Assembly (NCBI GenBank): GCA_903813345.2
Contig: CAIIXF020000002.1
Location: 15,074,467 to 15,138,466, forward strand
Direction: 5' to 3'
Origin: Owenia fusiformis
Taxonomy: Eukaryota; Annelida; Polychaeta; Sabellida; Oweniidae
DNA: 64,000 nucleotides
Shown here: positions 1 through 42,000 of the stretch, one piece after another
Position numbering within the stretch: position 1 is the stretch's first letter
How the letters are laid out: each line of letters starts with the position of its first letter
Program-made: the position numbers and the translations under genes
Notes under the pieces: generated by a model
The model's input: only the letters and a program-made list of their open reading frames with translations
Database searches by the model: none
What the model was told of the DNA's origin: nothing

Positions 1-2925
1 CTGTATCATCCCTACATCATTAGCACCATCTCCTATTGCAAGTGTGATCATATTAAAGTGAACCAAGTAACTGTTGAAGTATGGTAACCTTAATATTACC
101 TGTATCATCCCTACATCATTAGCACCATCTCCTATTGCGAGAGTGATCATATTAAAGTGAAGCAAGTAACTGTTCAAGTATGATAACCTTAATATTACCT
201 GTATCATCCCTACATCATTAGCACCATCTCCTATTGCAAGAGTGATCATATTAAAGTGAAGCAAGTAACTGTTGAAGTTTGATAACCTTAATATTACCTG
301 TATCATCCCTACATCATTAGCACCATCTCCTATTGCAAGAGTGATCATATTAAAGTGAAGCAAGTAACTGTTGAAGTATGATAACCTTAATATTACCTGT
401 ATCATCCCTACATCATTAGCACCATCTCCTATTGCAAGAGTGATCATATTAAAGTGAAGCAAGTAACTAGCTGTTGAAGTATGATAACCTTAATATTACC
501 TGTATCATCCCTACATCATTAGCACCATCTCCTATTGCGAGAGTGATCATATTAAAGTGAAGCAAGTAACTGTTGAAGTATGATAACCTTAATATTACCT
601 GTATCATCCCTACATCATTAGCACCATCTCCTATTGCGAGAGTGATCATATTAAAGTGAAGCAAGTAACTGTTGAAGTATGATAACCTTAATATTACCTG
701 TATCATCCCTACATCATTAGCACCATCTCCTATTGCAAGTGTGATCATATTAAAGTGAAGCAAGTAACTGTTGAAGTATGATAACCTTAATATTACCTGT
801 ATCATCCCTACATCATTAGCACCATCTCCTATTGCAAGAGTGATCATATTAAAGTGAAGCAAATAACTGTTGAAGTATGATAACCTTAATATTACCTGTA
901 TCATCCCTACATCATTAGCACCATCTCCTATTGCAAGAGTGATCATATTAAAGTGAAGCAAATAACTGTTGAAGTATGATAACCTTAATATTACCTGTAT
1001 CATCCCTACATCATTAGCACCATCTCCTATTGCAAGTGTGATCATATTAAAGTGAAGCAAGTAACTGTTGAAGTATGATAACCTTAATATTACCTGTATC
1101 ATCCCTACATCATTAGCACCATCTCCTATTGCAAGTGTGATCATATTAAAGTGAAGCAAATAACTGTTGAAGTATGATAACCTTAATATTACCTGTATCA
1201 TCCCTACATCATTAGCACCATCTCCTATTGCAAGTGTGATCATATTAAAGTGAAGCAAGTAACTGTTGAAGTATGATAACCTTAATATTACCTGTATCAT
1301 CCCTACATCATTAGCCCCATCTCCTATTGCAAGAGTGATCATATTAAAGTGAAGCAAATAACTGTTGAAGTATGATAACCTTAATATTACCTGTATCATC
1401 CCTACATCATTAGCACCATCTCCTATTGCAAGTGTGATCATACTAAAGTGAAGCAAGTAACTGTTGAAGTATGATAACCTTAATATTACCTGTATCATCC
1501 CTACATCATTAGCACCATCTCCTATTGCAAGAGTGATCATATTAAAGTGAAGCAAGTAACTGTTGAAGTATGATAACCTTAATATTACCTGTATCATCCC
1601 TACATCATTAGCACCATCTCCTATTGCAAGAGTGATCATATTAAAGTGAAGCAAGTAACTGTTGAAGTATGATAACCTTAATATTACCTGTATCATCCCT
1701 ACATCATTAGCACCATCTCCTATTGCAAGTGTGATCATATTAAAGTGAAGCAAATAACTGTTGAAGTATGATAACCTTAATATTACCTGTATCATCCCTA
1801 CATCATTAGCACCATCTCCTATTGCAAGTGTGATCATATTAAAGTGAAGCAAATAACTGTTGAAGTATGATAACCTTAATATTACCTGTATCATCCCTAC
1901 ATCATTAGCACCATCTCCTATTGCAAGTGTGATCATATTAAAGTGAAGCAAATAACTGTTGAAGTATGATAACCTTAATATTACCTGTATCATCCCTACA
2001 TCATTAGCACCATCTCCTATTGCAAGTGTGATCATATTAAAGTGAAGCAAGTAACTGTTGAAGTATGATAACCTTAATATTACCTGTATCATCCCTACAT
2101 CATTAGCACCATCTCCTATTGCAAGAGTGATCATATTAAAGTGAAGCAAATAACTGTTGAAGTATGATAACCTTAATATTACCTGTATCATCCCTACATC
2201 ATTAGCACCATCTCCTATTGCAAGTGTGATCATATTAAAGTGAAGCAAGTAACTGTTGAAGTATGATAACCTTAATATTACCTGTATCATCCCTACATCA
2301 TTAGCACCATCTCCTATTGCAAGTGTGATCATATTAAAGTGAAGCAAATAACTGTTGAAGTATGATAACCTTAATATTACCTGTATCATCCCTACATCAT
2401 TAGCACCATCTCCTATTGCAAGTGTGATCATATTAAAGGGAAGCAAGTAACTGTTGAAGTATGATAACCTTAATATTACCTGTATCATCCCTACATCATT
2501 AGCACCATCTCCTATTGCAAGTGTGATCATATTAAAGTGAAGCAAGTAACTGTTGAAGTATGGTAACCTTAATATTACCTGTATCATCCCTACATCATTA
2601 GCACCATCTCCTATTGCAAGTGTGATCATATTAAAGTGAAGCAAATAACTGTTGAAGTATGATAACCTTAATATTACCTGTATCATCCCTACATCATTAG
2701 CACCATCTCCTATTGCGAGAGTGATCATATTAAAGTGAAGCAAATAACTGTTGAAGTATGATAACCTTAATATTACCTGTATCATCCCTACATCATTAGC
2801 ACCATCTCCTATTGCAAGTGTGATCATATTAAAGTGAAGCAAGTAACTGTTGAAGTATGATAACCTTAATATTACCTGTATCATCCCTACATCATTAGCA
2901 CCATCTCCTATTGCAAGAGTGATCA
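1..2925 (-). repeat. Exon-boundary minisatellite A: 99-bp unit, about 30 copies, exon 21 donor edge
   Basis: Tandem 99-bp units reach the left window edge and probably continue past it. On the minus strand each unit is 17 codons of exon 21 ([17 protein letters not shown]), the donor CAG|GTAATA and 48 bp of intron. About 30 donors are visible. Copies differ at a few sites (for example GCGAGAG, GCAAGAG or GCAAGTG; AAGTAAC or AAATAAC), so expansion is recent. One copy near 468 has a 4-bp insertion. Because 99 is 33 codons, the reading frame stays open across about 25 units. Confidence 0.95.
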
Positions 2926-3064
2926 TGTTGACAGATTTCTTTACTAGCTCAACCAGCTCTGACTTCTGTAGGGGTGAGACCCTACAGCAAATGACTGCTT
3001 TGCAGGATATAGCAATTTGTAGGAAATCTTGCCTGCAGTCGGGGGTCAAGGCGTACTTCAGAGT
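2876..3064 (-). CDS. ATP8A: Flippase exon 21: GDGAND hinge motif
   Basis: Encodes [20 protein letters not shown], then [23 protein letters not shown] and [23 protein letters not shown] coordinates Mg2+ in the phosphorylation domain. Acceptor TTTTCAG, donor ATACAG|GTAATA. The last 17 codons and the donor are the unit of the 99-bp array that fills the rest of the window to base 1. Confidence 0.94.
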
Positions 3065-39000: not shown

Positions 39001-42000
39001 CAGACATTATGCGGAAGAACTCTAGTACAGTGGAACCCATCTCCTGGAGAATATATAACATAACATTGAGAAATCTATTGTGTATATGCACACATACAGT
39101 GAGTGAAATCAATTGTTGGTATGGATTGAATGCTTGAATTCTGATATCTCTATGGCACTATTCAAGGGAGCAAACATGTTGAGAAAAGCTGATTTCTACA
39201 ATACATGGTAAAAGATGGGACCAATGGACTGTGTAATTTACCAGCTATACCGCCCAAAAATGGACATGAGCAGATGGATGGACAAATAGACGAATGATAT
39301 CACCATGTCTGACACAATGACATGATTGTTGAATGATCATTTTCAATCTCATATGTACTATATGCATGATAGATGCATTTTAGATTCCAAATAAAACCAT
39401 TATATGATAATCTAATATCTTACCATGCTGGGGTCAATGTCTTTAAGTACAGTAGGATCATCAAAGAACTCCCCACTGCTGTAATTCCTACAAAGAAACA
39501 AAGCTGACTGGATAACATTCCTCTCTTAAAATAATCATCAATGAAAATCTCATGTTGTAGGTTTTAAATATCAGGTTATATGTGTTAAACACATTCCACT
39601 TGAAAGCTGCTTATAGATCATCATTAAGAGTTTCAGAAAAATAACAACTTAACTCACCCAAAGACTTTTCCAGCAATACTGCATTTTTTAAACTCCATTA
39701 TATTCCTAGTAAGTGTGCCAGTCTTGTCAGAGAATATGTACTTCACCTAAATATAAAATTGTTATGGTATTTCGATATCATGATACTTGATAGAAGTACA
39801 CGCTCACAGTATGAGAGGAAATTCTAGTTTTACAATGAATTTATTGGAATTCAAACATGGCTAAATACTCTCAATCAATCAATTAGTTCTTATCCACCTT
39901 TAGGAAAAATGTTATGGGTATTACCCATAGTGTTATCCATAATAATGGTAATTCATTAGATTATTTATGGTTTATATGTACATAACCCATAGTGTAACCC
40001 ATAGTGTTACCCATAGCCAATAGTTATGGTTAAAACTTACATGTTATAACAATGATATACTCATAATTTAACATAAGTAGATGTTATGGGCTAAGCATGT
40101 GTAGGTTATTGGCAAATTACGTGTCCCCATAACATACACATAAATTCCAAATAACCTACACATAACTTGCACATTACCAATACATAATGACATAATATCA
40201 TTATTTACCCATTATTACCCATTATAAGTCATTACCAAAAAACTTAGGTTGGATACGGCATCAATTATCTCTAAGTTATGGGTACTTGGGGGCTATGGGT
40301 AACAATATGGGTAGTTATGTGAAACATATGGGTTACCCATAACATTTTTCCTAAGTCAACAATGAATGATATATGACATAATTAGCTACACTGTTCAAAT
40401 CTGGGACAGTTTTATGTCTAGATCCAGTGATGAATATTGTGACTTCATTCCTAGTTTACTTGAACAGGCAAACTCAATCTACAAATTCATTTTTGTCCAA
40501 TTATTATGAATTAATTAATATGAATACATGGATAGCTATAAAATCAATTTCAATTTTTCATGCTGGTATTAGCAATGGTTGAATTCAAACTGAAGTAAAA
40601 CTGCAGATCAAACAATTCAAGACTTTCATTTGTGATACAATGCATGACAATACTTATTTCGGAGAAAAGGCATACTTACTTGACCTAACTCCTCATTAAG
40701 GTTCGATGTTCTTGCCATGGCAGGAGTATCAGTAGGGGCATAATACATATCTACATCCTGGAAGCATAATTATGCAATTAAAAAGATTGGCAACTAATCC
40801 GTAGATCTCCCACGGAGAATAAGTCACATTTGAGTCCCTGCAACTTTGTACCCTTTTGAATGATCTTGGGTGATCTACACCAGCTGATCTACACCCTAGA
40901 TGACAATTATAGTTCTCTAATCTAGCATATCACAAATCAAAATAAATAGTATTCATATATTGTTCATTTCACATTCAAAATCCCATAAACTGCTATGAAA
41001 TCCACAAGCCAAAATGTACTTATAAGCATCAGAATTATACAAGGTATTAACATGCAAAATGTCACCACCTGCCATTTGTTCCAGATGCTGAACACCATCC
41101 ACAAAAACGGTGGAGACAGTAACTAGTAGTTGTGACATAAAAATCATATGTTCTGGTCAAAGAGGAGTTCTGCTCCCAGTTGAAAGTGATGGGTTTTCTA
41201 TATTACACTTACCCAGTTGATAAAGATAGCTTGGATGAATCGTACAACTTCAAGGGAAACCTGTAGACTGATTGGAATGAGGTTGTTGTAAAGAATGATG
41301 AATGTCAGGAAGTTGAAAGTGATGGGTTTTCTATATTACACTTACCCAGTTGATAAAGATAGCTTGGATGAATCGTACAACTTCAAGGGAAACCTGTAGA
41401 CTGATTGGAATGAGGTTGTTGTAAAGAATGATGAATGTCAGGAAGTTGAAAGTGATGGGTTTTCTATATTACACTTACCCAGTTGATAAAGATAGCTTGG
41501 ATGAATCGTACAACTTCAAGGGAGACCTGTAGACTGATTGGAATGAGATTGTTGTAAAGAATGATGAATGTCAGGAAGTTGTAGCCAAAATTAGTTGGAG
41601 GTTCCACTGTAATAAAATAATAACAATGATATAATGTTAGACCCACTTCAGGTTTCCCAATCCAATCCAATACATACATACAGTGTAAGTTAAGTATTTC
41701 TGATGCTAATGTTCTCTTAATGTGATGTCGTGATAGGTAATGACCCTAGGTCAATCAATATGAAATAATCTTCCTAAAATGGAACTCTATCTGCCTTTGA
41801 GGTTTCAGGCAACTGTTTTGATATAATATATTCTCCTATTAGTAATGGTGCATATAATGTCACAAATCTAAAATGGATGAAAAGTGTGAAAACTTACAGT
41901 CAAAGCCAAGGTACCAGTCTGTATTCTCATGTTGCTTTGTCCATATTATATTGGCAATGGTGCTGATCAGAGAAAGGACAATCAGAACAATAAACAGCAT

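What the first reader, a model, noticed from the sequence alone, without database searches (positions are those of the whole stretch)
2876..41606. Six exon boundaries of one flippase gene have become minisatellites that copy splice sites
Arrays A-F each have a unit made of one exon edge, its splice site and adjoining intron (99, 87/89, 67, 99, 136 and 133 bp). The intact exon always sits at one end of its array, and the array extends into the intron. Ordinary intronic satellites exist in the same gene (42.8-44.0 kb) without exon sequence, yet six of about 40 exon edges are amplified. This looks like a process that targets splice junctions, for example AGGT-containing tandem duplication as proposed for intron birth, or replication/transcription-linked slippage. 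I know of no described system of this kind, but that is not a literature search.
Basis: partly seen in the sequence, partly recalled or inferred. Interest (0 to 1): 0.88.

Follow-up and report, generated by a model that had tools for sequence, protein, structure and literature searches.

The report
Splice-edge minisatellites ("mirages") in animal genes
In this animal's genes many young tandem repeats are copies of one edge of a working exon together with its splice site, a kind of repeat described before mainly in lancelets, and in the genes sampled here they sit at exon edges several times more often than chance would put them.

Summary
All six arrays lie where stated; each unit holds one edge of a P4-ATPase exon, its GT or AG, and adjoining intron. 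Array A runs past the window to about 65 copies (6.45 kb). The excess holds in other genes: over 13 genes, 22 of 64 tandem arrays overlap a mapped exon edge against 8.5 expected (P 5e-6); among those with at least 90% internal match, 20 of 35 against 5.0 (P 7e-10), among the rest 2 of 29 against 3.5. The 90% cut was chosen after seeing the window gene. Five flippase paralogs alone give 9 of 15 against 1.9. Seven other genes give 5 of 13 against 2.4 from automatic exon maps (P 0.056), 10 of 14 once exons found by eye beside arrays are added, a biased step.

It is not undescribed: lancelet "mirages" are the same kind (PMC3087553, PMC3902484). The host is probably an annelid, unnamed.

Best reading: local tandem duplications, favoured where exon DNA is involved, survive if the copy next to the intact exon keeps a whole splice site, then expand as ordinary minisatellites. 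No sign of function was found; the birth bias is unexplained. A low-powered genome-wide pattern test showed no excess.

The parts
1..2926 (-). Array A, 99-bp unit (51 bp exon + 48 bp intron), donor edge; continues outside the window to C2:15070940, 65 copies in all
2876..3032 (-). Authentic exon beside array A (ends ...[17 protein letters not shown])
7781..9718 (-). Array B, 87/89-bp unit (48 bp exon + 39 bp intron), acceptor edge, 22 copies
7764..7828 (-). Authentic exon beside array B
19448..20913 (-). Array C, 67-bp unit (46 bp exon + 21 bp intron), acceptor edge, 21.9 copies
19409..19493 (-). Authentic exon beside array C
35241..36391 (-). Array D, 99-bp unit (44 bp exon + 55 bp intron), acceptor edge, 11.6 copies
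35152..35284 (-). Authentic exon beside array D
36575..39027 (-). Array E, 136-bp unit (93 bp exon + 43 bp intron), donor edge, 18 copies
38935..39043 (-). Authentic exon beside array E
41178..41581 (-). Array F, 133-bp unit (103 bp exon + 30 bp intron), donor edge, 3 copies
41479..41606 (-). Authentic exon beside array F

Best explanation
These are 'mirage'-type minisatellites. Shown: each array repeats a stretch that straddles one exon edge, in place, and lies in the neighbouring intron; the same kind occurs in other flippase genes and in RNA-polymerase and myosin genes of the same genome, mostly among homogeneous (young) arrays. Inferred: duplications arise preferentially where exon DNA is involved; those wholly inside coding exons are removed because they change the protein; those that straddle an edge survive if the copy touching the intact exon still carries a whole splice site (a few bases at a donor, about 20 or more at an acceptor); splicing picks that copy by exon definition and treats the rest as intron; unequal exchange or slippage then grows and shrinks the array neutrally. 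What makes exon-containing DNA duplicate more often is not known.
For: Edge excess: 22 of 64 arrays against 8.5 expected; among those with at least 90% match 20 of 35 against 5.0, and 9 of 15 against 1.9 in five paralogs. Exon-heavy units: mean 0.63 against 0.47 expected, P 0.001 over 26 units. Intron part is 2-48 bp at 14 donors but never under 21 bp at 12 acceptors (Mann-Whitney P 0.017; chance of 12 of 12 at 21 bp or more under uniform placement 0.04). Where it is only 2-3 bp (two donor units) the junction gives GTAAGC/GTAAGG or GTAAGT. Copies look unselected: 6 of 29 unit lengths are multiples of three, and splice dinucleotides (380 of 388 intact) are not significantly more conserved than other sites, P 0.15. 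For units A-D all 123 listed genome matches lie inside their own arrays.
Against: A survival filter alone cannot explain why purely intronic young arrays, which need no filter, are so few; a birth or retention bias must be assumed. Less homogeneous edge arrays are nearly missing (2 of 29), which needs fast turnover. The genome-wide pattern test with AGGTAAGT found 5 distinct arrays on contigs C1+C2 against 12 for the reversed octamer. In the seven non-flippase genes the fully automatic excess is only 5 of 13 against 2.4 (P 0.056), and three of the seven (MYO1, MYO10, MYO12) have none, nor has the C6 flippase. Correct splicing of these transcripts was not observed here.
Confidence: 0.55

Rival explanations
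1. A process aimed at splice junctions themselves (for example breaks or R-loops tied to transcription or splicing) starts the duplications.
For: The same edge excess; both donors and acceptors are hit.
Against: The junction is not at a fixed place in the unit (exon share 0.24 to 0.94) and units lean to the exon side; by eye, with no motif program run, no common motif was apparent at the unit ends.
Confidence: 0.22
2. The arrays have a function, for example as splicing regulators, decoys or alternative exons.
For: 380 of 388 copied splice dinucleotides are intact; arrays A and D stay open in frame for 871 and 424 codons.
Against: Only 6 of 29 unit lengths are multiples of three, and splice sites are not significantly more conserved than other sites; by eye the edges hit in the window gene and in the C4 paralog are different ones.
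Confidence: 0.08
3. The genome is simply rich in minisatellites and some fall on exon edges by chance.
For: Minisatellites are common: 64 arrays in 13 genes; arrays under 90% match show no excess; the octamer test showed no excess of distinct arrays.
Against: 22 of 64 arrays at edges against 8.5 expected, P 5e-6; 20 of 35 against 5.0 among homogeneous ones.
Confidence: 0.05
4. Assembly or polymerase artefact.
For: None found; reads were not available.
Against: Copies differ by their own variants, the arrays have many unit types in unrelated genes, and one C4 array is cut into three pieces by other DNA.
Confidence: 0.03
5. A mobile element (introner-like or Helitron-like) carries the units.
For: Some other arrays in these introns belong to dispersed families.
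Against: Units A-D matched nowhere else in the genome search (E and F not queried; that search skips very common words); the intron part is contiguous with the gene's own intron.
Confidence: 0.02

Closest known systems
'Mirages' of lancelets (Branchiostoma Adh3, globins BflGb6 and BflGb9, PGBD5, troponin C; from passages of PMC3087553 and PMC3902484)
   Same: Tandem duplications of an exon-intron boundary, at 5' or 3' edges, beside the authentic exon; unit sizes overlap (10-160 bp in the passages read).
   Different: Much longer arrays here (up to 65-69 copies; there 6 and 3 units in two BflGb6 haplotypes, up to 7 in PGBD5), and a host that is probably an annelid. Length polymorphism and normal splicing were reported there but not tested here.
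Variable minisatellites at exon-intron boundaries of human genes in segmental duplications (PMC2812944, passages)
   Same: Minisatellites lying at exon-intron boundaries; 27 such intron modifications after inspection in that paper.
   Different: On average 30-bp units repeated 4 times over all variable repeats there, in recently duplicated genes, and said to form new introns or alternative splicing; here longer units and arrays in ordinary genes, and no sign of new introns.
Human IFI6 (6-16) minisatellite giving multiple splice donors (Turri 1995; only its title was seen, in a reference list)
   Same: A minisatellite that includes a splice donor.
   Different: One locus; by the title its repeats provide multiple donor sites in the transcript, which was not tested here.
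Intron gain by duplication of AG/GT proto-splice sites (Rogers model, as described in PMC3087553)
   Same: Tandem duplication involving splice-like sequence.
   Different: Here no exon is split and no new intron was seen.
Tandem exon duplication with mutually exclusive exons
   Same: Repeated exon sequence in an intron.
   Different: The window units carry one edge only; one myosin array (MYO4, 122 bp) has a whole 103-bp exon.

Membership tests
Mirage minisatellites | Unit spans an exon-intron boundary with its splice site | tested here: met
   6 of 6 window arrays, and further arrays in other genes
Mirage minisatellites | Authentic exon intact, copies in the neighbouring intron | tested here: met
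   Gene models by homology; no transcripts
Mirage minisatellites | Both 5' and 3' boundaries can be affected | tested here: met
   14 donor and 12 acceptor units tabulated
Mirage minisatellites | Normal mRNA is made despite the copies | not testable with these tools
   No transcripts at hand
Mirage minisatellites | Length polymorphism and somatic instability | not testable with these tools
   One assembly only
Mirage minisatellites | Host is a cephalochordate (the hosts in the two papers read in passages; not a necessary feature) | tested here: inconclusive
   No GFP-family match, without a positive control; annelid haemoglobin-linker domain 4 matches, best E 5e-7, PDB linker L3 E 1.6e-5
AGGT tandem-duplication intron gain | Duplication inside an exon yields a new intron bounded by the copied AGGT | tested here: not met
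   In the window gene the copies lie in existing introns next to an intact exon
Mutually exclusive tandem exons | Each copy is a whole exon with both splice sites | tested here: not met
   The six window units carry one edge each
Mobile element / introner | Unit copies at unrelated loci | tested here: not met
   All 123 listed matches of units A-D lie in their own arrays; E and F were not queried

The most novel reading that the evidence does not exclude
Tandem duplication in this lineage is actively directed to exon edges by a transcription- or splicing-linked process in the germ line, making thousands of short-lived splice-site arrays across the genome, a standing supply of material for new exons and introns.
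Probability: 0.2. Interest if true: 0.8.

Novelty: new member of a known kind. Interest (0 to 1): 0.5.

Why it matters
If the excess holds genome-wide, it means that new short tandem duplications are far from random in genes, and that exons are duplication-prone for a reason not yet known. It moves a lancelet curiosity to what is probably a second phylum, offers natural experiments on how splicing ignores dozens of perfect decoy sites, and makes the proposed route from boundary duplication to new introns or exons testable.

Tried and rejected
Considered and dropped: chance overlap (rejected for the sampled genes); mobile element; in-frame or alternative-exon use (6 of 29 units divisible by three); selection on copied splice sites (9 changed bases against 22 expected, P 0.15); per-gene clustering of edge arrays (P 0.07); AGGT junction model. 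Junction microhomology was looked at (L mod p): a few arrays give 5-8 bp, but partial copies make most unreadable, so nothing is claimed.

Result against a genome-wide excess: pattern AGGTAAGT x3 at 33-63 bp spacing gave 562 matches against 284 for the reversed octamer, but counted by hand as distinct arrays on C1 and C2, the contigs that both capped lists cover whole, it is 5 against 12. The test is weak, since none of the 14 donor units tabulated has AG|GTAAGT at the authentic site.

Led nowhere: naming the organism by assembly size or by an Owenia search, COI, eukaryotic SSU rRNA (tool errors). Owenia fusiformis (505.8 Mb, 12 chromosome-scale scaffolds, passages of PMC9977687) fits in size and number but is a guess. 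PMC12783039 (earthworm metallothionein, passages) describes first-intron tandem repeats and two extra copies of exon 4, one of them reversed, that are not in the final transcript; the passages do not show edge copies in tandem.

Rows dropped or choices made before counting: arrays with period under 25 bp or TRF score under 60, arrays outside the span of mapped exons, and 13 tiny exons judged spurious. The 90% match cut was chosen after the window gene had been seen; without it the count is 22 of 64 against 8.5. Of the flippase loci, five besides the window gene were fetched; lone matches at C5:23752045 and C6:24558661 were not. The paralogs were not picked blind: before fetching I suspected arrays in two of them from the listing. 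The seven other genes were picked before their letters were seen (3 of 3 RPB2-like loci, 4 of about 19 myosin clusters listed); the listing does show open-frame lengths. The six exons added by eye were all found beside arrays, so '25 of 36' is biased upward; '20 of 35' has no such step. C2b 8954, C2b 13596, C4 35180 and POL11 6888 lie at or within about 15 bp of a splice site (the C4 one by eye) but were counted as non-edge. The C4 79-bp array counts as three rows, one edge and two non-edge (one of these in the under-90% class). The 26-unit list, the 29 unit lengths and the donor/acceptor lists were typed by hand; the 26-unit list leaves out abutting arrays, two ambiguous C2b units and the whole-exon unit. 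Array F is but not. In one search the donor of the C4 102-bp array was misplaced (0 of 11 intact); one search corrects it (11 of 11).

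Full report
Observation. The window is C2:15074467-15138466 of a 498-Mb genome in 525 contigs. Donor edges lie in A, E and F, acceptor edges in B, C and D. The copied GT or AG is intact in 139 of 142 copies. Array A runs on outside the window to 65 copies.

Is it more than chance? I compared array units with exon edges after collapsing each array to one unit, so that array length does not inflate the expectation. 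Beyond the window gene I used five flippase paralogs found with TIGR01652 (fetched) and seven genes picked from PF00562 and PF00063 listings before their letters were seen: 3 of 3 RPB2-like loci and 4 of about 19 myosin clusters. With automatic exon maps, 22 of 64 arrays overlap an edge against 8.5 expected, P 5e-6. The excess is all among homogeneous arrays: with at least 90% match 20 of 35 against 5.0, P 7e-10; under 90% 2 of 29 against 3.5. The 90% cut was suggested by the window gene; leaving that gene out, it is 14 of 28 against 4.3 (P 5e-6) and 2 of 22 against 2.9. By set, at 90% or more: window gene 6 of 7 against 0.73; five other flippases 9 of 15 against 1.9 (P 1.3e-5); seven non-flippase genes 5 of 13 against 2.4 (P 0.056). 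The maps of the last set have gaps. Six exons found by eye beside arrays raise it to 10 of 14 against 2.9, and the total to 25 of 36 against 5.5, but that step is biased. MYO1, MYO10, MYO12 and the C6 flippase have no edge array. Distribution over genes is uneven but not significantly so (30 arrays including abutting ones, 402 edges, P 0.07).

Other examples: a 61-bp unit in 69 copies and a 51-bp unit in 36 copies in the C4 flippase, a 133-bp unit at an acceptor and a 31-bp unit (KDYVTSGITG, placed by eye) at a donor of the POL11 (RPB2-like) gene, and five arrays in one myosin, two of them by exons placed by eye. One of the five repeats a whole 103-bp exon with 19 bp of intron.

Anatomy and mechanism. 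Units A-D are local: all 123 listed genome matches lie in their own arrays (E and F not queried). Units are exon-heavy: mean exon share 0.63 over 26 units against 0.47 for random straddling with the observed exon lengths, P 0.001, which speaks for exon-biased rather than junction-centred birth. The intron part shows an asymmetry: 2 to 48 bp at 14 donors, 21 to 168 bp at 12 acceptors (Mann-Whitney P 0.017; chance of all 12 acceptors at 21 or more under uniform placement 0.04). This is what a survival filter predicts: the copy touching the intact exon needs a donor of a few bases, or a branch-point and pyrimidine-tract stretch of about 20 bases or more, to give normal mRNA. The two shortest donor parts still read GTAAGC/GTAAGG and GTAAGT across the junction. 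The filter is an inference; the test is small and was thought of after seeing the numbers.

No sign of function was found. Six of 29 unit lengths are multiples of three. Splice dinucleotides are intact in 380 of 388 copies (19 array edges), but the 9 changed bases compare with 22 expected for random adjacent pairs, P 0.15. Of 14 arrays compared the exon part is the more diverged in 7, the intron part in 6, and they are equal in 1, so no purifying selection on the copied exon part is evident.

Evidence against or limiting. The octamer pattern test found no excess of distinct donor-like arrays (5 against 12 on C1 and C2, counted by hand; whole-genome match counts 562 against 284, swollen by long arrays). 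It is weak because none of the 14 donor units tabulated has exactly AG|GTAAGT, but it means genome-wide generality is not shown. A filter cannot by itself explain the shortage of purely intronic young arrays; some birth or retention bias is needed, and I have no evidence for its cause.

What is known. PMC3087553 (passages read) describes minisatellite-like tandem duplications of exon-intron boundaries in lancelet globins, called mirages after the lancelet Adh3 case, at either boundary, apparently without interference with splicing, with length instability, and proposes them as a route to new introns. PMC3902484 (passages read) adds PGBD5, whose splicing there rests largely on prediction, and troponin C. 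The original Adh paper is not held and is known to me only through these. Outside lancelets, PMC2812944 (passages read) reports variable minisatellites at exon-intron boundaries of human genes in segmental duplications (27 intron modifications after inspection), and a title in a reference list names a human minisatellite giving multiple splice donors. Searches show titles and abstract starts only, of an open library; I did not open most of the papers listed, so I make no claim that there are no further reports. I saw no report in a named annelid.

Host. No GFP-family match (no positive control) speaks against a lancelet; annelid haemoglobin-linker domain matches, 4 with best E 5e-7, and a PDB linker match at E 1.6e-5 speak for an annelid. 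Size and at least 12 numbered contigs, of which those met here are 32-62 Mb, would fit Owenia (505.8 Mb, 12 scaffolds in PMC9977687, passages). This is a lead, not an identification.

Verdict. A correct and well-chosen observation of a known but little-studied kind, probably in a new phylum, with longer arrays and a strong excess in the sampled genes.

Noticed in passing
G000 C9:37986009-37994334: Twelve matches to one myosin-head exon (profile positions about 18-84) in a row, looking like an ordinary mutually exclusive exon cluster in a muscle myosin gene.
   Followed up: no
L010 (C10:3416001-3426000) at 1023-1130, 3325-3432, 4544-4651: Three diverged tandem copies of one flippase exon, an ordinary exon duplication.
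   Followed up: no
window 9930-10491 and 46800-47430: Dispersed satellite/MITE-like family with AAAATGGCGGCCATTTT, also matched in the C5 flippase, POL7, POL11 and MYO12 regions.
   Followed up: partly
window 21110-21810 and 26895-27445: 54/109/160-bp CCTGTATGAATCC palindrome-rich satellites in introns of the same gene.
   Followed up: no
C4 flippase region, region coordinates 17711-17952, 18792-19757, 25238-25603: One 79-bp exon-edge array cut into three pieces by about 0.8 kb and 5.5 kb of other DNA, so it seems older than those insertions.
   Followed up: partly
L026 (C1:8400001-8410000), 1096-1250: 33-bp repeat that looks open in frame on the minus strand (SYKAPSYKSQD type, read by eye), possibly a coding repeat of another gene.
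   Followed up: no
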